Source: Caldicellulosiruptor bescii DSM 6725 (GTDB lineage Bacteria; Bacillota; Thermoanaerobacteria; Caldicellulosiruptorales; Caldicellulosiruptoraceae). Taken from it: 64,000 bases of DNA. A model generated the notes under the pieces. That model did not search any database, was not told the origin of the DNA, and saw only the letters and a program-made list of their open reading frames with translations. Where the stretch lies: assembly GCF_000022325.1 (NCBI RefSeq), contig NC_012034.1, forward strand, positions 2,541,501 through 2,605,500, in the 5' to 3' direction. Shown here piece after piece: positions 29,575 to 46,290 of this stretch (position 1 is its first letter; each line of letters starts with the position of its first letter). Both the position numbers and the translations under genes were made by a program.

Positions 29575-30906
29575 CTACTGGCACATGGAGGCTCCAACCT
29601 CTACAGGTTGGAGTGGAAATGTGCCTGAGATTCTTATTCGTTCTAATTCGTAGCAGTACCCATCAAATCGTTGAATTATTTTGCAGTGTTTATATGAAAT
29701 ACTCTGAACAATCCTTTTCCCGGTTTTGTCCTTTATATCAAAATACCCGCTGTTTCTACACGATACTGTCCCTACCCATGTGCCTTTGTACTTGCCTTTC
29801 GGAACAACTACTTTTACCATATCACCAGTTTGAAAGCCATAGAAAAATTTCTTTCTAGTTCTATGCCCACGTGGAAAACCATACCTGTCAAGTATAGCAA
29901 TTTGTCTTGTGCCTCTACCTTTCGCTATCACGTGCAAAACAGTTTTGGTCTTGAGCCAAATTCTATTTGGTGTAGAATACCCTACACAGATTGCATCAAA
30001 ATGATGGTCTTTTGGTAGTCCTAACTTGATTCTATTCATCTTTGTCAAAGCTCCACTTCCACATTCCACAGGTAAACCTGTGTTTTTTAAAACTTCGTAT
30101 ATTCTCCATCTTGTTGCGTTAACCAATGCACAATCCCTTAGTGGCGCTTTTACAAGTTTCTGAATCTCTGGATACCCAAACTCTTCCGCTGTCTTATTCC
30201 CTTTTTTCTGGTTACACCCATGGCAGGCTATGACAAGGTTGTCTACTCTGTCTGTTCCACCTCTTGACTTTGGAATGACATGTTCAACTTCGAGTGGTAC
30301 TCCTGTAGCACCACAGTAGACGCATCTCCAGTTGAATTTCTCAAGCAAATATTCTTTTACTTCATAACCCTGAAGAGTACCATGCTGGTATTCTATTCCA
30401 GAAATCTCTGGATTTCTTAGCTTCTGCGTATCAAATTTGACGTTCTCATATGAAATAGCAGTAACAGGACACAGTTTGCAAAGTCTTTTTACCCACGTTT
30501 CAATGTTTCTTACCCTGCTCAGTAGTGTAGGCGGTAACCAATTCTCATCCCTTCTCCTGTTCGAAAATCTTGCTTTTCTGTACCTTGTCTTTCTATTTCT
30601 CCTACTACGTCTCAAACTGCGTCTTCTATCCATGTTCTCTTTTATCTCTGTTCTGTGATATAACTTCATCATGAATACAACTTCGCAATTGTTCTTCAAT
30701 ATGACAATTCCTGTGCACCTGCTACCATAGTCAATTTTAAGTCTGTAGTTTGGCTTGAACGTTGATGTATCTTTTTGCTCTTTGAGTCTTATAGTGAAAG
30801 GGTAGATTCTATGGATTACTGCTTTTCCATGCTTAAGCAATTTTCTCGCAACCGCTTCATGACAGGGTGCTAAAGGTGTTTTATCCCTGTTCAGTACAAA
30901 TACCAT
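29575..30906 (-). CDS. iscB: IscB RNA-guided nuclease (RuvC/HNH), copy 1
   Basis: 443 aa, all IscB parts in order: N-terminal RRXRR/PLMP domain (VFVLNRDKTPLAPCHEAVARKLL), RuvC-I LKIDYGSRCTG (D59), an arginine-rich bridge helix (RRRSLRRSRRNRKTRYRKA), RuvC-II SYENVKF, HNH (CVYCGATGVPLEVEHVIPKSRGG...CHGC, about 195-245), RuvC-III HHFDAICVG and a C-terminal beta domain. All catalytic residues look intact. IscB is the Cas9 ancestor and uses an omega RNA encoded upstream. ATG 30906 with GGGAGGAG upstream. Inserted between element genes, with no transposase. Confidence 0.92.
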   Translation of the reverse strand: MVFVLNRDKTPLAPCHEAVARKLLKHGKAVIHRIYPFTIRLKEQKDTSTFKPNYRLKIDYGSRCTGIVILKNNCEVVFMMKLYHRTEIKENMDRRRSLRRSRRNRKTRYRKARFSNRRRDENWLPPTLLSRVRNIETWVKRLCKLCPVTAISYENVKFDTQKLRNPEISGIEYQHGTLQGYEVKEYLLEKFNWRCVYCGATGVPLEVEHVIPKSRGGTDRVDNLVIACHGCNQKKGNKTAEEFGYPEIQKLVKAPLRDCALVNATRWRIYEVLKNTGLPVECGSGALTKMNRIKLGLPKDHHFDAICVGYSTPNRIWLKTKTVLHVIAKGRGTRQIAILDRYGFPRGHRTRKKFFYGFQTGDMVKVVVPKGKYKGTWVGTVSCRNSGYFDIKDKTGKRIVQSISYKHCKIIQRFDGYCYELERIRISGTFPLQPVEVGASMCQ

Positions 30907-31210
30907 GGGATTGGAGTTCTCCTCCCTTCTCCAGCAGGATTTGATTCTGCTGGGTGACGTGCAGGTTGGACTACACCTGCATCTTCCATCGCCAATGTTA
31001 TCCCTACTTTGCTGTGTGCAGACCACTGTCCCTACCCCGACAGGACTGTTTAAGTCTGCACGGCAGGGTCTGGAGCTTGGGACGCACTCCAGAGTGCCCT
31101 AGGCAGGGATAACGTAGGGACTTCATTCCCTTGTCCTTCGGGTCAGTCCCTCAGGCTGGTCAACCACGAGGCCCTTCAAGTCTCCGCCTCTACAGGCGGG
31201 GGTAGTTGAC
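29585..31210 (-). mobile_element. IS200/IS605-type insertion carrying iscB (copy 1), no tnpA
   Basis: The left end has hairpin CCGCCT-GT-AGAGGCGG after GTCAACTACC (31210). The right end, overlapping the iscB stop, has CTCCAACCT-GT-AGAGGTTGGAG (near 29593-29614). Matching loop sequences at both ends mark subterminal hairpins read by a Y1 transposase. The exact right boundary is uncertain. Mobility would need TnpA from elsewhere. Confidence 0.7.
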
Positions 31211-31226
31211 TATGCAAGTTTTTTCT
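30907..31226 (-). ncRNA. omega RNA of IscB copy 1 with putative guide
   Basis: The 300 bp before iscB have no ORF but many stems: GTCAACTAC/GTGGTTGAC, the CCGCCT hairpin, GTTATCCCT/AGGGATAAC, and CAGCAG/CTGCTG near the start codon. In IscB systems the scaffold is encoded here, and the guide is the host sequence just outside the left end. By that rule the guide is AGAAAAAACTTGCATA (31226-31211), which is the 3' end of the neighbouring gene. Confidence 0.75.
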
Positions 31227-31527
31227 TGTATTTCTTTTCGCATTCCCTGCAGGTACAACCGTTTTTGAACCCATGACACTGAGCTTTCCCCCAGCATGCC
31301 GCTTCCCTACCGTACAAAATACACTTTTCACACCCTACACTCATGCCCCAGCCGTTCCACAACATCCACGGTTCTACCGTTATTACTGTTTTGTCGTAGC
31401 ATTCGTTGACAAAATCAATAGCTTTTTCTAATCTTTCCTGTGCTTCTTGAATACTATTTGCTTGAATTGTTATCTTGTGAATTTTAGCTGATTTCTTTGT
31501 CCTGTATGCTAGCTGGAAATTAGTCAT
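31210..31527 (-). CDS. hypothetical cysteine-rich protein, truncated at IS junction
   Basis: 105 aa. N-terminal beta part, then a cysteine cluster (CEKCILYGREAACWGKAQCHG, CTCRECEKK) suggesting zinc binding. ATG 31527 with GGGAG 9 nt upstream. The stop TAG takes its last base from the first base of the IscB insertion (GTCAAC), so the original C-terminus may have been lost. Function unknown. Confidence 0.5.
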   Translation of the reverse strand: MTNFQLAYRTKKSAKIHKITIQANSIQEAQERLEKAIDFVNECYDKTVITVEPWMLWNGWGMSVGCEKCILYGREAACWGKAQCHGFKNGCTCRECEKKYKKKLA

Positions 31528-31569
31528 TTTGCTCATCTCCCAACTTATTAACAAAGTTATACCACAAAA

Positions 31570-32239: not shown

Positions 32240-32618
32240 TTACAAATTGCAGACAATTTTAAGATGGTCTGGACCATATCTGTTCTTGACTACTTCAATC
32301 ATATTCTGTTGTGGATACGTTAATCTGTGCAGACCCAGGATTACATCAGCATCCTGATGAATATAGTCATGCAGTATCTTTTTGGGTGTATCAAAAGTTA
32401 TGATATCGAAACGTTGCTCTATACTGGTCTGCTTTATAGTCATGTTTATATGTCTGATACGTGTATTTAAATCCCAAAAAGTATACATTGTATTCAGTTC
32501 TTGATAGTCGTCTACGATGACTAATCTTAAATCCTCAAAACGCATAACAATATCTTTTAGTTCTTCTATACAGTCAATAGGACTAAAATGTATGGGTACT
32601 TTTCTCAGTTCTTCATGT
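32240..32618 (-). pseudogene. C-terminal half of RecA-like ATPase gene split by the TnpB insertion
   Basis: Open from the TnpB element's right end to 32240. It begins HEELR-KVPIHFSPIDCIEELKDIV, then RFEDLRLVIVDDYQELNTMY, a Walker B-like strand, and ends at KIVCNL. Joined to 34102-34409 after removing 32619-34101, it gives one continuous protein of about 228 aa. Probably a helicase/ATPase-like replication accessory, by analogy with DnaB-type folds. Confidence 0.75.
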
Positions 32619-32760
32619 TTGACCTCCTCCCAATCCCCTGAAGGGGATAGGATTCCTCTTCAGGGGTTGGGCTTCCCGCTTCTACGTGGTATGACTTACC
32701 AGGATATAGGGATTACCCCTGAATATCTTGGCAGCGGTCTCCCACTCCACGGGCGTAAGT
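32603..32760 (-). ncRNA. TnpB omega RNA (reRNA) with putative guide
   Basis: In TnpB systems the RNA spans the 3' end of tnpB, the right-end hairpin and about 16-20 nt of flank. Here the right end has stem TATCCCCT-TC-AGGGGATT, then GGAGGAGGTCAA. The flank starts ACATGAAGAACTGAGA (32618-32603), the predicted guide. Confidence 0.65.
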
Positions 32761-34101
32761 TCGGACCGGCCCAGCCCTACTTCCTTCAACATGTTTATCG
32801 CTGCATTTAAATCCCTATCAATTTCCAGGCTACACACTGAACATCTGAAAATTCTGTCCGACAGCGAAATTTCCTGTTGACTTCCACACCTGCTGCATGT
32901 CTTTGTGGTTGGTACGTTGCTTTTAACCACCGCAGTAGAAACCCGAAGACTGTCGCTCAGTCTTCTCTTAATTGTTCCTACTGCGCTGTGGTGTACTGAT
33001 TTGGAAAAATGTCCGTTCTTCCAACCCTTGATGTTGTCATCTTGAAAACATATCTTCCTGTACCTGTACAAAAATGAACAGGTTTTGTTAATTACGTCGT
33101 ACTTGATGTTCGTTAACTTTTCATACTCCTTTGCAATCTTTTCCTTTGTTTTGTACCATCTTTTAGAACCTTTTTTCTGACGTGAAAACTGTTTTTGCAA
33201 CTTCTTTAGTCGCCTGGTTTCTTTTATCTGCCATTCAAGTTTGAGACCGTTTGATAACATAAATCCAGTGGGTTTGAAATCAATTCCACTATCAGTTGCA
33301 AATGTCTGCCATACCCTTGGTTTTACTACACCTTTTCTGTTCTTTCTGTGTTTCCACGCTCCTGTGTATTTATCCCTATCTATGTAGCAGGTTACAAAAA
33401 GATAAATGCCACTTGGTCTTCTTACCAGTTCTGCTTTTGCTATTTCGCTATCTCCGGGAATTTGATGCCCACCCAGTACCCTCAAAGGTTTTTTAATGCC
33501 CTGTATTTTAACTCTGGTCTTCTGCTGGTTGACAAACTTGAAAGTGTTCCCGTATTGCTTAAGGGGTATTGAATTAACACAATGCTTGAATTGCAGTTTA
33601 CCTGTTCTATATCCGTTTTCTTTTTGTACATGAAGAGAGTACAAATTCTGCTTTATTCTTTCTCTTAGTGCCTGCTTCATCTGTGAACTGAGATTTTCAA
33701 TTTTTCTTCTCTCAAAATTTTCCCCGACCTTTATTTCGACTTCTTTTAGTTTGTCTGCATTGCTATTAAGTCTGTTTTCAATGTCAGCAACTATGTAGTT
33801 GTACAGCCATTTCGCTTCTAAAAACAATTTAGAGAGTTTGTTTTTTGTCTCTTTAGAAACAGAACTAAGATTAATTTTTAGTTGATATACCACAGGTATC
33901 TGATTTTTTCTTCTTTCTTTAGTTTGCTGCCGTGTTTGCTTAATTTTTTCTGCCTTTGTCATTTTTCGACTCTCCTGATAGCACCGAAAAACTTTTTGCT
34001 ATTTCTATTATACCCCGTACTCTTAAAATGGTACAAGAAAAGAAAAACAACAGCCATTCATCACAATCCCCTGAAGGGAATGTGCTTTCTGGCTGATTCT
34101 T
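32619..34101 (-). mobile_element. IS200/IS605-type insertion carrying tnpB, no tnpA
   Basis: 1,483 bp. Left flank TTTTTTAC (34109-34102), a typical TTAC-type target. Left-end hairpin ATTCCCTTCAGGGGAT at about 34063-34078, and right-end hairpin TATCCCCTTCAGGGGATT at about 32630-32650. Excision between 34102 and 32618 restores an open frame (...TFF-T-HEELRK...), fixing the ends to within one base. Confidence 0.85.
32682..33962 (-). CDS. tnpB: TnpB RNA-guided nuclease (IS605 OrfB)
   Basis: 426 aa: N-terminal WED-like part, RuvC-I FATDSGIDF (D224), RuvC-II CFQDDNIKGW (residues 305-314, where relatives have QDEN), zinc ribbon CSRCG...CSVC (356-376), RuvC-III DRDLNAAINML (D384). TnpB cuts DNA next to a TAM, guided by its 3' RNA. 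The Glu-to-Asp change at the second catalytic position may weaken it. ATG 33962 after AGGAG. Confidence 0.88.
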   Translation of the reverse strand: MTKAEKIKQTRQQTKERRKNQIPVVYQLKINLSSVSKETKNKLSKLFLEAKWLYNYIVADIENRLNSNADKLKEVEIKVGENFERRKIENLSSQMKQALRERIKQNLYSLHVQKENGYRTGKLQFKHCVNSIPLKQYGNTFKFVNQQKTRVKIQGIKKPLRVLGGHQIPGDSEIAKAELVRRPSGIYLFVTCYIDRDKYTGAWKHRKNRKGVVKPRVWQTFATDSGIDFKPTGFMLSNGLKLEWQIKETRRLKKLQKQFSRQKKGSKRWYKTKEKIAKEYEKLTNIKYDVINKTCSFLYRYRKICFQDDNIKGWKNGHFSKSVHHSAVGTIKRRLSDSLRVSTAVVKSNVPTTKTCSRCGSQQEISLSDRIFRCSVCSLEIDRDLNAAINMLKEVGLGRSELTPVEWETAAKIFRGNPYILVSHTT

Positions 34102-34409
34102 GTAAAAAATGTTAGAAACTTTTCGTACATTTTTTCTACTGGAACGGAACAATTTATGAGTAGGACTGTTCCTCCCTGTAACGCAATGTTTCTAGCAAGT
34201 TTCACAGTTAACATGAGGAAATCTACAGGTGGATAGACTACTGCGTATATCCACTTTCCGCCATCCAGCGGACCTGCAATCTCGTCAAATTCTTTATGAC
34301 CGTACCATATTTTTGTTTTTTTAAAGTACTCCAGAAGGTCTTTTGCTAATTCTTCCGGAGAGTATGCGCGTGGAGTATTTTTGTTACTCTTCATCCTTAG
34401 CACCCCCAT
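34102..34409 (-). pseudogene. N-terminal half of RecA-like ATPase gene split by the TnpB insertion
   Basis: From ATG 34409 (or 34394): YSPEELAKDLLEYFKKTKIWYGHKEFDEIAGPLDGGKWIYAVVYPP, VKLARNIALQGGTVLLINCS, VEKMYEKFLTFFT, then the IS. As it stands, translation runs on into the IS left end and stops at 34023. It lies just downstream of dnaB (8 bp). Confidence 0.75.
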
Positions 34410-38737: not shown

Positions 38738-39577
38738 CTACAGACCAAGTGCGTATTTTTCTTTTTGACGTAGTTCCTCCAATTTATAATTGGTTATAAA
38801 AAGTTCCTTTCCTTTTTCTGCTTTTGATTGTTTGTAGTTGTTCATGCCGTACTGTAATTCCCATTCGTAAATATTGGCAAATTTAAATAGTTTTCTGACT
38901 TCAGGTGAATCATCGTACGTTATCATCCACAGGTGAGGACATTTTTTTATGTTGAAGGCAAACCTTTCATGGTCGAAGCTTAAATGCAAGTCTCCATTTT
39001 TTCCATACAGGCGAGATTCAGTGGTACTGTAGTAAGGTGGATCTAAAAAAATAAATACTTCATTGCCCGGTTCAAATAAAAGTTTTTCGTAATCTCCATG
39101 GGATATTTCAAAATCCTTGATAATTTCAGCTGCCTGTTTAAGTTTATTTATTGCACTCCATGTAAAGCGATTTTCAAAAGATTGCTGAGAGTATCCACCC
39201 GAATCTACTGTACCTGAGAATGTAATACGATTGAGAATATAAAATCTTACTGCTCTCTCAAATTCACCACCACCGTTTTGAGATGTAAGGAATTCATACA
39301 ATTTTCGTCCGTCTTTATAGTTTTCCTTTATCTTACTAACTTCCTCTATTAACTGTACAGGGTTATCCCTTAATTGTTTCCAAAAGCAAATCAAGTCGTA
39401 GTTGAGGTCATTGATTTTTATTTTAACATTAGTGTACAGTTGTTTTACTGCAAGGGCAACTGCTCCACCACCAACCATTGGTTCTCTGTATTCTCTAAAA
39501 CCAACAGGCAAGTTAGGTAATATGTATTTTAATGCTTTTGATTTTCCACCAGGGTATCGAAGAACGTTTTTGAGCAT
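38738..39577 (-). CDS. Dam-family (D12) N6-adenine DNA methyltransferase
   Basis: 279 aa. RYPGGKSKAL (AdoMet motif I), VGGGAVAL, and catalytic DPPYY (FIFLDPPYYSTTESRLY). D12-class enzymes methylate adenine, often in GATC. ATG 39577 with AGGTGG 8 nt upstream. It has its own GTGGTATAAT promoter (39603-39612) between it and the upstream endonuclease gene. Confidence 0.9.
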   Translation of the reverse strand: MLKNVLRYPGGKSKALKYILPNLPVGFREYREPMVGGGAVALAVKQLYTNVKIKINDLNYDLICFWKQLRDNPVQLIEEVSKIKENYKDGRKLYEFLTSQNGGGEFERAVRFYILNRITFSGTVDSGGYSQQSFENRFTWSAINKLKQAAEIIKDFEISHGDYEKLLFEPGNEVFIFLDPPYYSTTESRLYGKNGDLHLSFDHERFAFNIKKCPHLWMITYDDSPEVRKLFKFANIYEWELQYGMNNYKQSKAEKGKELFITNYKLEELRQKEKYALGL

Positions 39578-39602
39578 TGTTAAAACCACCTACCTAATCT
39601 TT

Positions 39603-39612
39603 ATTATACCAC
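39603..39612 (-). promoter_or_regulatory. GTGG-TATAAT promoter of the methyltransferase
   Basis: TATAAT with the element's GTGG prefix, in the 46 bp between endonuclease stop and methylase start. The -35 is weak (TTGGGA, 19 bp away). Confidence 0.6.
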
Positions 39613-39623
39613 AGTTACAATTT

Positions 39624-40604
39624 TTACTCCCAACTTTCAATGTGAGAAAAAAGTTTTTGGGGATGACCTACTAGTTGGATGTCAAATTTTAAAGAGAGTT
39701 CTAATTTTGAACTAGCGTTGTGGAGTCTAAAGGAAATAGTCCAACCGTTATCACACACTACATGAACAGTATTCTTAGAGTCTTCTTTGAAGTATATGTT
39801 TTGAAATTTAGTAGGCAGTTTTAATTTCGGACCAATTTTAAATTCAGGTTTTCTATCACAGCAAGGTTGATTTAAAAGGCCGTTAAGGTTGAAAGCTTGA
39901 ACCATAGTACTTTTTGTATTCTCAAGAGAAATTACTTTGTAAAAGTCATTTTTTCCTAATAAATATTTAAGCAACTTGGAAGGTATGGTTTCCTCAAGTC
40001 CTTTATTCTCTTTTTCTATCCTTATCAATTCCTTGACAAAAGCATTTAGAAGAGGGACATATACCATTTCTTCTTTTTCTTCAATTTCATTCCAGCATTT
40101 TTTCTCTCTCATCTGTATTTCAATTTCGGAAAAAACTTTTTTTATCTCGTCAAAATAATTTTGAGAACAAGGAATGCCAAGCCATCTTTTACCAAAGTCC
40201 AATTTTGGGGAAAGACGTGGGTGCTTAACAGCCAAATGATTGTGTTTACAACTTATACCTATCTCCCATTTTGTTGCAGGTTCTAAAATTCTTATAGCTA
40301 ACATATCTCTTACATCACCACGTTGCCCTGCAGCATCTTCTTGCAATCTGAGAATTATTTCATTCGTGTGGTTTTTACAAACTAAATGTGGTTCACATTT
40401 AGAAATGATTTTTGCTGCTGCATTAGCAGCCTTCAACATATTTTTTTGTTCTTCATCGCTCTGTTTTAAAAATAATCGTTCAGCAGTTTTAAGAGCTCTT
40501 GTTTCCTGGATAACAACTTTTTGTTGGATTTCATTTTTCAAGTAGTTTTCGAACTCTATGATACAAGCATATTCGAAGGCTTTTCCTTTTGCGGTTTGGT
40601 CCAT
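39624..40604 (-). CDS. HaeIII-family type II restriction endonuclease
   Basis: 326 aa. Matches the RE_HaeIII family: QTAKGKAFEYACIIEFENYL at the N-terminus, GQRGDVRDMLAIR, WEIGISCKHNHLAVKHPRLSPKLDFG (core of the nuclease), WLGIPCSQNYFDEIKKVF. HaeIII cuts GGCC and is normally paired with a C5-cytosine methylase. Here the only neighbour is an adenine methylase, so recognition or partnership may differ. It probably protects the element or ensures its retention. Confidence 0.8.
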   Translation of the reverse strand: MDQTAKGKAFEYACIIEFENYLKNEIQQKVVIQETRALKTAERLFLKQSDEEQKNMLKAANAAAKIISKCEPHLVCKNHTNEIILRLQEDAAGQRGDVRDMLAIRILEPATKWEIGISCKHNHLAVKHPRLSPKLDFGKRWLGIPCSQNYFDEIKKVFSEIEIQMREKKCWNEIEEKEEMVYVPLLNAFVKELIRIEKENKGLEETIPSKLLKYLLGKNDFYKVISLENTKSTMVQAFNLNGLLNQPCCDRKPEFKIGPKLKLPTKFQNIYFKEDSKNTVHVVCDNGWTISFRLHNASSKLELSLKFDIQLVGHPQKLFSHIESWE

Positions 40605-44554: not shown

Positions 44555-46290
44555 CAGAAGACTCCATTTTCTTTAAGATGGAGATGAATGCGCTGTTGGC
44601 AACAAGTGGGTTCTTAACTGTGGTATAGACTGTTGTACATAACAACCATTCCTTCGTTATGGAGTACCTGCCTGCATTCTTCTGGTTGAACGTACATTTT
44701 TCCCACTATCTTTTTTAGCTGTGGCGAATACAAATACTTCTGGGATACCACACCTGTTGTTACAAACCTCTTGCCTGTTGGTTCGTGAATCCATACATCA
44801 CCCGCTATAGTCGGCATTTCTTTTCGCAGCGGGTTAAGAATCTTTGTACCGGGATATACCTTGAGTTTTCTTTGAATTTCCGGTGGCAATGGTGATATAT
44901 CTGCAAAGGACGGTTCTTTCTGGTCTGTCCTCTTACGTCTGTTCTTCGCCACAATCTTACCATCAACCTTGTACAGTCTGTCTCTTACAGCATGTATTCT
45001 TGCCCTGTTGTGTCTTCTGAACTTTACCAGGGTTAGCTCAATCATGTGTGTTCTGTCAGCTTCTGTACAGCTGCAAAAGACCGCTGCTGTTGCCAGAGCG
45101 TCGTTTGCATGTCCTTTCTTAAGACCCAGTTTTTTTCTCATCTGTGCCGCGTCAGATGCAGGTACGAACTTCAGCCATGGTATTTCACGCAGTTGACCTA
45201 TTATCGCATTCATCGTACCCAGTGCACGCCACTGCCTGACACCTTCCACCGGTATATACACTCTTCCAGCATGGACATCTTCATGACAGTCCCTGCACAG
45301 GTACACCAGGTTTTCCTGAACGTCTGTACCACCACATTTACGCTGTATCAAATGGTGCTTCTGCAGATTGTCTTCTGTACCGCAGATAATACACTTCTTC
45401 TCTGCTGGAACTCTGGGTGATTTTTGATACCCTGTACCATATGTTTTACCCCATGTCATTGTTCTGACATCAAAGATGTTGTCTTCCATAACGAACACAA
45501 CCTGCTCTGCTGGGAATGGAAAGAACTTTAAGAGTTTTTTGTAAAGGTTGAGGTGGGTTTCTATGCCATGTCTAAGTGTTGCATTTGTTCTATCCTTTGT
45601 CCTTACATTTCTTGGTGCTTTGAATTTTGTCAGGACCCTACTATGTCTTTTGGACATTCGTTTTTTTCTGCACCTTGAGTGGTACCTGCGGTTTCGTCTG
45701 TATCCCCTTCTTTTAGTCATCAAGTCCTTAATTTCAGGGATTCTTGTTTCTAAAACCCCTATACAGTAGACAATCAATACGCCCCAGCGAAGTTCGCATA
45801 CTGCAAAGCCTATGTGGTGGTATCCCGGGTCAAGTACTACAAAGAGACGTCTTTCTATCGTTTTGGAGTAGTCAAACTCCCTGTCGAGGAACATCACAAC
45901 CGGTGGTTTGCCAGAAGCTCCACCACCGATGATTTTTGCTCTACCCTGCTTTACCAGTTTTCTTACCATATCAAATCTTCTTGTTGGGTGTCCTGGTCTT
46001 CCATGTTTGTCAACGGTGAAGATTACCAATATTCTTTCCCTCCTTGTTCAGGAGCCCTATGATCTGGGCACCTTCCAAAAGGAAGGTGGTAGGTCTCCCT
46101 GAGGCGTGCTGTAGCACCCTGTGTAAGGCTGCGGGATTGCACCGCTGTCTCCCGGAACTGGGAGTGTCGTCCCGGAACGTCAGGTTCTGCTACAGCATCA
46201 CCCACGTTCAACTACCTGCCAGCAGGCAGACTCACCGGCAGTCCACCCTTGCCAGCAAGCCACCGCCTCTTCAGGGGGGTGGTAGTTGAC
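44555..46290 (-). mobile_element. IS200/IS605-type insertion carrying iscB (copy 2), no tnpA
   Basis: Left end: GTCAACTACC (46290) with hairpin CCTGAAGAGG-based stem. Right end: hairpin CTCCATCTT-AAAG-AAAATGGAG at 44563-44584 after the ORF. Right boundary is approximate. The same GTCAACTACC start as copy 1 shows common ancestry. Confidence 0.65.
44614..46029 (-). CDS. iscB: IscB-like RuvC/HNH RNA-guided nuclease, copy 2
   Basis: 471 aa, divergent from copy 1. RRXRR-type N-terminus (MVIFTVDKHGRPGHPTRRFDMVRKLV), RuvC-I VVLDPGYHHIGF (D67), arginine-rich bridge (RRGYRRNRRYHSRCRKKRMSKRHSR), RuvC-II FVMEDNIFD, HNH CIICGTEDNLQKHHLIQRKCGGTDVQENLVYLCRDCHEDVH, RuvC-III GHANDALATAA, and a long C-terminal domain. 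TTG 46029 with AGGAGG 9 nt upstream. Confidence 0.85.
   Translation of the reverse strand: MVIFTVDKHGRPGHPTRRFDMVRKLVKQGRAKIIGGGASGKPPVVMFLDREFDYSKTIERRLFVVLDPGYHHIGFAVCELRWGVLIVYCIGVLETRIPEIKDLMTKRRGYRRNRRYHSRCRKKRMSKRHSRVLTKFKAPRNVRTKDRTNATLRHGIETHLNLYKKLLKFFPFPAEQVVFVMEDNIFDVRTMTWGKTYGTGYQKSPRVPAEKKCIICGTEDNLQKHHLIQRKCGGTDVQENLVYLCRDCHEDVHAGRVYIPVEGVRQWRALGTMNAIIGQLREIPWLKFVPASDAAQMRKKLGLKKGHANDALATAAVFCSCTEADRTHMIELTLVKFRRHNRARIHAVRDRLYKVDGKIVAKNRRKRTDQKEPSFADISPLPPEIQRKLKVYPGTKILNPLRKEMPTIAGDVWIHEPTGKRFVTTGVVSQKYLYSPQLKKIVGKMYVQPEECRQVLHNEGMVVMYNSLYHS

What the first reader, a model, noticed from the sequence alone, without database searches (positions are those of the whole stretch)
32603..34110. 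TnpB insertion whose exact removal restores a split ATPase gene in frame
Seen: removing 32619-34101 joins ...TTTTTTAC to ACATGAAG..., giving an open ...FFTHEELRKVP... across the join with Walker B downstream. It fixes the IS ends, gives TTTAC as target/TAM and ACATGAAGAACTGAGA as the guide. The guide matches the empty site of the same gene, so TnpB should cut revertants and keep itself in place.
Basis: partly seen in the sequence, partly recalled or inferred. Interest (0 to 1): 0.65.

Follow-up and report, generated by a model that had tools for sequence, protein, structure and literature searches.

The report
IS608-type TnpB element splitting a gene
A small jumping gene of a well-known type, carrying an RNA-guided DNA cutter, sits cleanly inside a gene of another mobile element; its borders and guide are confirmed to the base, the proposed self-preservation trick is already known for this family, and the one unusual point is that the cutter's active site is built differently from the textbook one.

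Summary
Element 32619-34101 (- strand) is a tnpB-only IS200/IS605 element of the IS608 type. It lies 3' of TTAC, ends in TCAA and has no target duplication. It carries all four IS608 end signals (TTAC/AAAG, TCAA/GAAT). Aligned ends of seven relatives fix the borders, and a sister copy's empty site in two other species shows the same joint at base level. Removing the element gives one open 223-aa frame. The only homologue found (same genus) is uninterrupted there (FFAHEELKKVP against FFTHEELRKVP), although a different TnpB element splits it 20 codons upstream. The host gene is a DnaB-like paralogue that lacks a P-loop, so 'ATPase' is doubtful.

The inferred mechanism is that the guide ACATGAAGAACTGAGA targets the TTAC-flanked empty site, which is cut and repaired with the element. 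That is the published role of TnpB, not a new one. Protein and guide-RNA region are under selection.

No transposase lies in the element. The RuvC-II catalytic Glu is Gln in this whole TnpB clade, with an invariant Asp/Glu two residues on: probably a shifted active site, though loss of cutting is not excluded.

The parts
32619..34101 (-). tnpB-only IS200/IS605 element (IS608 type), 1483 bp, single full copy in the genome
   Evidence: ends aligned over eight copies; only full match in own genome
34102..34105 (-). TTAC target / cleavage site CL / presumed TAM, just 5' of the element
   Evidence: TTAC precedes all eight aligned copies; empty site at base level for a sister copy
34085..34088 (-). 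left guide tetranucleotide GL = AAAG, 5' of the left imperfect palindrome
   Evidence: identical to IS608 GL; conserved in the aligned copies
34062..34084 (-). left-end imperfect palindrome (CACATTCCCTTCAGGGGATTGTG)
   Evidence: sequence; DNA fold of the left end; conserved in copies
32682..33962 (-). tnpB ORF, 426 aa; D228 (RuvC-I GID), Q307 in place of the catalytic Glu, D309, D382/D384 (RuvC-III DRD), zinc-finger Cys pairs
   Evidence: Pfam Cas12f1-like_TNB and OrfB_IS605; PDB TnpB hits by sequence and fold; alignment; dN/dS 0.09-0.19
32619..32775 (-). inferred reRNA (omega RNA) scaffold: 3' end of tnpB plus right end; 5' limit not determined
   Evidence: conserved in seven copies; 0 of 14 fourfold sites vary in the last 45 codons against 46 of 83 before; fold z -2.6 for scaffold plus guide
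32652..32655 (-). right guide tetranucleotide GR = GAAT
   Evidence: identical to IS608 GR; conserved in eight copies
32629..32651 (-). right-end imperfect palindrome (CCTATCCCCTTCAGGGGATTGGG)
   Evidence: sequence; conserved in copies
32619..32622 (-). right cleavage site CR = TCAA, end of the element
   Evidence: conserved in all eight copies, sequence after it varies
32603..32618 (-). 16-nt guide supplied by the flank: ACATGAAGAACTGAGA
   Evidence: position by analogy with ISDra2 reRNA; preceded by TCAA, not TTAC, at the occupied locus; no second TTAC-flanked match with fewer than 3 mismatches in the genome
34102..34409 (-). 5' part of the split host gene (DnaB-like RecA-fold paralogue, no P-loop)
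32240..32618 (-). 3' part of the split host gene (Walker-B-like LRLVIVDDYQEL)

Best explanation
This is a tnpB-only IS608-type element inserted 3' of TTAC in a gene of a mobile-element replication module. Shown: the exact ends, the target, no target duplication, a single open frame after removal, an uninterrupted homologous joint, and selection on the TnpB protein and on the RNA-like 3' region. Inferred from the published mechanism: TnpB binds a right-end RNA whose 3' end is the flank ACATGAAGAACTGAGA. A TnpA acting in trans can excise the single strand, leaving TTAC joined to that sequence. TnpB then cuts this empty site, and repair from the sister copy puts the element back. The occupied locus is spared because TCAA, not TTAC, precedes the guide sequence. 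Cutting is assumed to use D228, D384 and a relocated RuvC-II acid, D309.
For: Ends and target; base-level empty site of a sister copy in two species; the IS608 signals CL TTAC, GL AAAG, CR TCAA, GR GAAT all present. Joined frame and homologous joint. TnpB assignment. Purifying selection, dN/dS 0.09-0.19. RNA constraint: 0/14 against 46/83 fourfold sites variable, p = 5e-5; conserved stable fold. No other strong target in the genome. Acidic residue two after Gln in 27/27 relatives and in the viral relatives that carry the Gln. Published mechanism: PMC8612924, PMC11870625.
Against: No tnpA in the element, and no intact tnpA with matching ends identified among the five Y1 loci of the genome. The catalytic Glu is Gln, and E278A kills ISDra2 TnpB activity. 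RuvC-I is also odd (GIDFK in place of the usual D-hydrophobic-G). The AlphaFold model is too poor around RuvC-I and the Q307 loop to judge the geometry. No expression or cleavage data.
Confidence: 0.78

Rival explanations
1. The TnpB of this clade binds its RNA-matched site but does not cut it (as Cas12m or the TldR factors do), so the element acts on the empty site by blocking rather than by breaking it.
For: Canonical RuvC-II Glu is Gln in every member; the non-canonical RuvC site of Cas12m2 binds without cutting; TnpB-derived RNA-guided transcription factors are known (TldR).
Against: An Asp or Glu two residues later is invariant in 27/27, RuvC-I GID (or its equivalent) and RuvC-III RD are kept, and proteins evolve under purifying selection while the elements keep spreading as multi-copy insertions. 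Loss of function would not preserve a new acid at a fixed place.
Confidence: 0.17
2. The insertion is an immobile relic: without tnpA it never excises, so no empty site arises and TnpB has no work to do here.
For: Single full copy in this genome, no tnpA inside, matching tnpA not found intact.
Against: tnpB is intact with dN/dS near 0.18, ends and RNA region are conserved, near-identical copies at two sites in G003 show recent movement of the family.
Confidence: 0.3
3. The element behaves as a self-splicing IStron-like insertion, so the host gene is still made from spliced RNA.
For: The gene is cleanly split and in frame.
Against: No group I or other intron found by Rfam; the element is little more than tnpB and the IS ends.
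Confidence: 0.02

Closest known systems
IS608 (Helicobacter pylori, IS200/IS605 family)
   Same: Insertion 3' of TTAC without duplication, right cleavage site TCAA, guide tetranucleotides AAAG and GAAT 5' of subterminal imperfect palindromes
   Different: No tnpA; the TnpB clade here has Gln at the canonical Glu (IS608's own TnpB was not compared)
ISDra2 TnpB with reRNA (PMC8612924)
   Same: RuvC/zinc-finger protein, RNA scaffold overlapping the 3' end of tnpB and the right end, guide taken from the flank, proposed cutting of the donor joint
   Different: TAM TTGAT against TTAC; catalytic triad D-E-D against D-(Q.D)-D; about 17% identity over the fold alignment
Fanzor / TnpBs with alternative Glu (PMC10711439)
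   Same: RuvC-II acid not at the canonical place
   Different: There the Glu lies just before the zinc finger; here that position is Tyr/Phe/Asn/Ser and the acid is two residues after the canonical place
IS-encoded TnpB as gene drive in plasmids (PMC11870625)
   Same: Guide recorded from the insertion site, empty copies expected to be cut
   Different: Chromosomal mobile-element module here; nothing tested

Membership tests
IS200/IS605 family, IS608 type | Insertion 3' of TTAC with no target-site duplication | tested here: met
   eight copies and empty sites in G003 and G004
IS200/IS605 family, IS608 type | Subterminal palindromes with GL AAAG and GR GAAT, CR TCAA | tested here: met
IS200/IS605 family, IS608 type | Y1 HUH transposase TnpA encoded in the element | tested here: not met
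   only the tnpB ORF in 32619-34101. So not an autonomous IS608-type element; by its ends it is a tnpB-only (non-autonomous) derivative, a form that is common in the family (established knowledge)
TnpB RNA-guided nuclease | OrfB/RuvC plus TNB zinc-finger architecture | tested here: met
   Pfam TNB 46 bits above cut-off, PDB TnpB matches; OrfB_IS605 and NCBIfam guided_TnpB slightly below cut-off
TnpB RNA-guided nuclease | D-E-D catalytic triad in the canonical places (the typical, not the universal, arrangement in TnpB) | tested here: not met
   Glu is Gln307; Asp/Glu at 309 invariant. It is a TnpB by descent and fold; its nuclease activity is not shown
TnpB RNA-guided nuclease | Structured right-end RNA overlapping the 3' end of tnpB | tested here: inconclusive
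   sequence constraint and predicted fold agree, but covariation is minimal and expression was not seen
TnpB RNA-guided nuclease | TAM-dependent, guide-dependent DNA cleavage | not testable with these tools
   needs biochemistry
Fanzor-type rearranged site (Ealt) | Glu six residues before the zinc-finger CxxC | tested here: not met
   column holds Tyr/Phe/Asn/Ser in 27 relatives
IStron | Group I intron in the element | tested here: not met
   no Rfam intron match

The most novel reading that the evidence does not exclude
A widespread TnpB clade (Aquificota, thermophilic bacteria, archaea, large viral contigs) has moved its RuvC-II catalytic acid two residues along the chain, leaving an invariant Gln at the old place, and still cuts DNA. 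This insertion, with guide, TAM and empty site all known, would be a ready test case, including whether a TnpB guide against a mobile-element gene excludes incoming uninterrupted copies of that element.
Probability: 0.3. Interest if true: 0.5.

Novelty: new member of a known kind. Interest (0 to 1): 0.32.

Why it matters
It is a fully resolved natural example in which ends, target, guide and empty site of a TnpB element are known to the base, so the retention model can be tested directly. Both known copies of the host gene are split by different TnpB elements. The clade's altered active site (Gln with an acid two residues on) would show how flexible the TnpB/Cas12 cutting site is, or reveal a natural group of non-cutting TnpBs. 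A published census of TnpBs is recalled from memory to report rearranged sites in several branches; whether this one is among them could not be checked.

Tried and rejected
Homologues of the host gene were sought in IMG/VR, in the GTDB contig scan (both by exact short-peptide seeds), in GenBank phages, and in 37 class and 398 phylum genomes. Only G001 was found, so the uninterrupted gene as a whole was never seen; G001 is uninterrupted at our site but split elsewhere. IStron was rejected. The Fanzor-type alternative Glu was rejected. Fold prediction of TnpB was made to see whether D309 can replace the Glu, but the model is poor there (pLDDT under 50 at 208-228 and 309-324) and gives no geometry. 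That removal of the G001 element would restore its gene in frame was considered and not supported: with the ends shared by its family (TTTAAC | ... TTCAC |) the joint has one extra base, so that copy was probably already frameshifted. The census paper on TnpB diversity and the 2023 paper on TnpB-driven retention are not held in the library.

Full report
Observation. On the minus strand the window reads ...AACATTTTTTAC | AAGAATCAGCCAGAAAGCAC ... GGGATTGGGAGGAGGTCAA | ACATGAAGAACTGAG... Taking out 32619-34101 (1483 bp) leaves one open frame of 223 aa. Alone the joint is ambiguous by one base. Relatives of the element in the same genus (81-89% protein identity) and one in a MAG scaffold labelled Pseudothermotoga settle it. 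In all eight aligned copies the left end follows TTAC, and the right end stops at TCAA, after which the sequence is different in every copy. A sister copy in G011 splits a HepT-like gene. Its joined flanks match eight other genomes over the full length; in G003 and G004 the site reads TATTTAC|AAGTTGCGATTG, exactly as the ends predict, and in the other six TTGC stands in place of TTAC. So ends, target and absence of a duplication are shown at base level.

The host gene. Homologues were found in one other genome only, G001 of the same genus. There our site is uninterrupted, FFAHEELKKVP against our joined FFTHEELRKVP, in the same frame. The G001 gene is itself split 20 codons upstream by a different TnpB element of canonical type that lost its tnpA. 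So both known copies of the gene carry a TnpB element, inserted independently and in the same orientation as the gene. The protein aligns with the neighbouring DnaB (21% identity, pairwise E 8e-6) and weakly with Pfam DnaB_C. A Walker-B-like LRLVIVDD is kept but the P-loop is gone in both genomes. I would call it a DnaB-like paralogue, not an ATPase. It lies in a module with a replication initiator, DnaB, RNase H, sigma factor, primase, RecT, ArdC-type anti-restriction protein, a tyrosine recombinase and secretion-type ATPases, so a mobile element of undetermined type.

What the element is. All four IS608 signals are present: CL TTAC, GL AAAG directly 5' of the left palindrome, CR TCAA, and GR GAAT directly 5' of the right palindrome. 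By its ends it is therefore an IS608-type IS200/IS605 element, but one that carries tnpB only. The genome has five Y1 transposase loci; the one element with a nearly identical right-end hairpin has a broken tnpA, so no intact matching TnpA was identified.

Is TnpB functional? Between copies dN/dS is 0.09-0.19 (about 0.18 on our own branch by subtraction). Synonymous change drops sharply in the last 45 codons: 0 of 14 fourfold sites vary there against 46 of 83 before (p = 5e-5), as expected if the RNA scaffold overlaps the gene. The predicted fold is stable and shared, though with little covariation because the sequences are so conserved; this supports constraint more than a specific structure.

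The active site. In ISDra2 TnpB the RuvC residues D191 and E278 are needed: either alanine mutant loses interference. Here the RuvC-I Asp (D228, GID) and the RuvC-III DRD are kept, but the Glu is Gln307. In 27 aligned sequences (this one and relatives from Aquificota, other thermophilic bacteria and archaea) the Gln is invariant and the second residue after it is always Asp or Glu (alignment numbers are one lower because the Met was dropped). The same Gln-x-Asp/Glu stands in the relatives from large viral contigs, except two more distant ones that keep the canonical Glu. It is not the Fanzor-type shift, in which the Glu lies just before the zinc finger (PMC10711439). In an extended strand two residues further along point to the same side, so a relocated acid is the simplest reading, but this is inference: the AlphaFold model is unreliable just there. 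A non-cutting binder, as with Cas12m2, is the main rival.

How it most likely works. The guide is the 16 nt after the right end, ACATGAAGAACTGAGA. At the occupied locus it is preceded by TCAA, so the host site is spared; after excision it is preceded by TTAC and becomes a target. Apart from the locus itself (TCAA before the guide, 2 mismatches) the genome has one match with 3 mismatches. Cutting the empty site followed by repair from the sister copy is the published proposal (PMC8612924), and a drive effect on plasmids has been tested (PMC11870625). The G001 allele (TCGC, three mismatches in the first 16 nt) should be immune.

Verdict. Observation confirmed; interpretation sound but already known and untested here; ordinary member of a known kind, with an unusual RuvC-II site as the point worth following.

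Noticed in passing
window 29575-31210 (-): IscB gene (RRXRR, HNH) with a HEARO RNA at 30977-31210, placed just after ORF 31210-31554 and absent at the same place in G001.
   Followed up: partly
window 44614-46029 (-): A second, divergent IscB-like ORF (RRXRR plus HNH) without a HEARO RNA at Rfam's threshold; three OMEGA-type nucleases thus lie within 17 kb.
   Followed up: no
L011 6169-9583 (G001): The homologous module in G001 looks decayed: DnaB and replication-initiator homologues are frameshifted, and the split gene would keep one extra base if its TnpB element were removed by the ends of its family (TTTAAC / TTCAC).
   Followed up: partly
L126-L152 (IMG/VR contigs): TnpBs of the Gln-x-Asp/Glu clade occur on viral contigs up to about 250 kb; some have PRD instead of DRD in RuvC-III.
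   Followed up: partly
L013 (G011), HepT-like gene: A sister copy of the element splits a HepT-like toxin gene in frame; the orthologous site in six species has TTGC instead of the TTAC target.
   Followed up: yes
L017 (G009) and L013 (G011): Some sister copies have broken tnpB (frameshift, in-frame TAG) but intact ends.
   Followed up: no
window 38738-40604 (-): A HaeIII-type restriction endonuclease gene beside a D12-class adenine methyltransferase gene; HaeIII normally pairs with a cytosine methylase.
   Followed up: no
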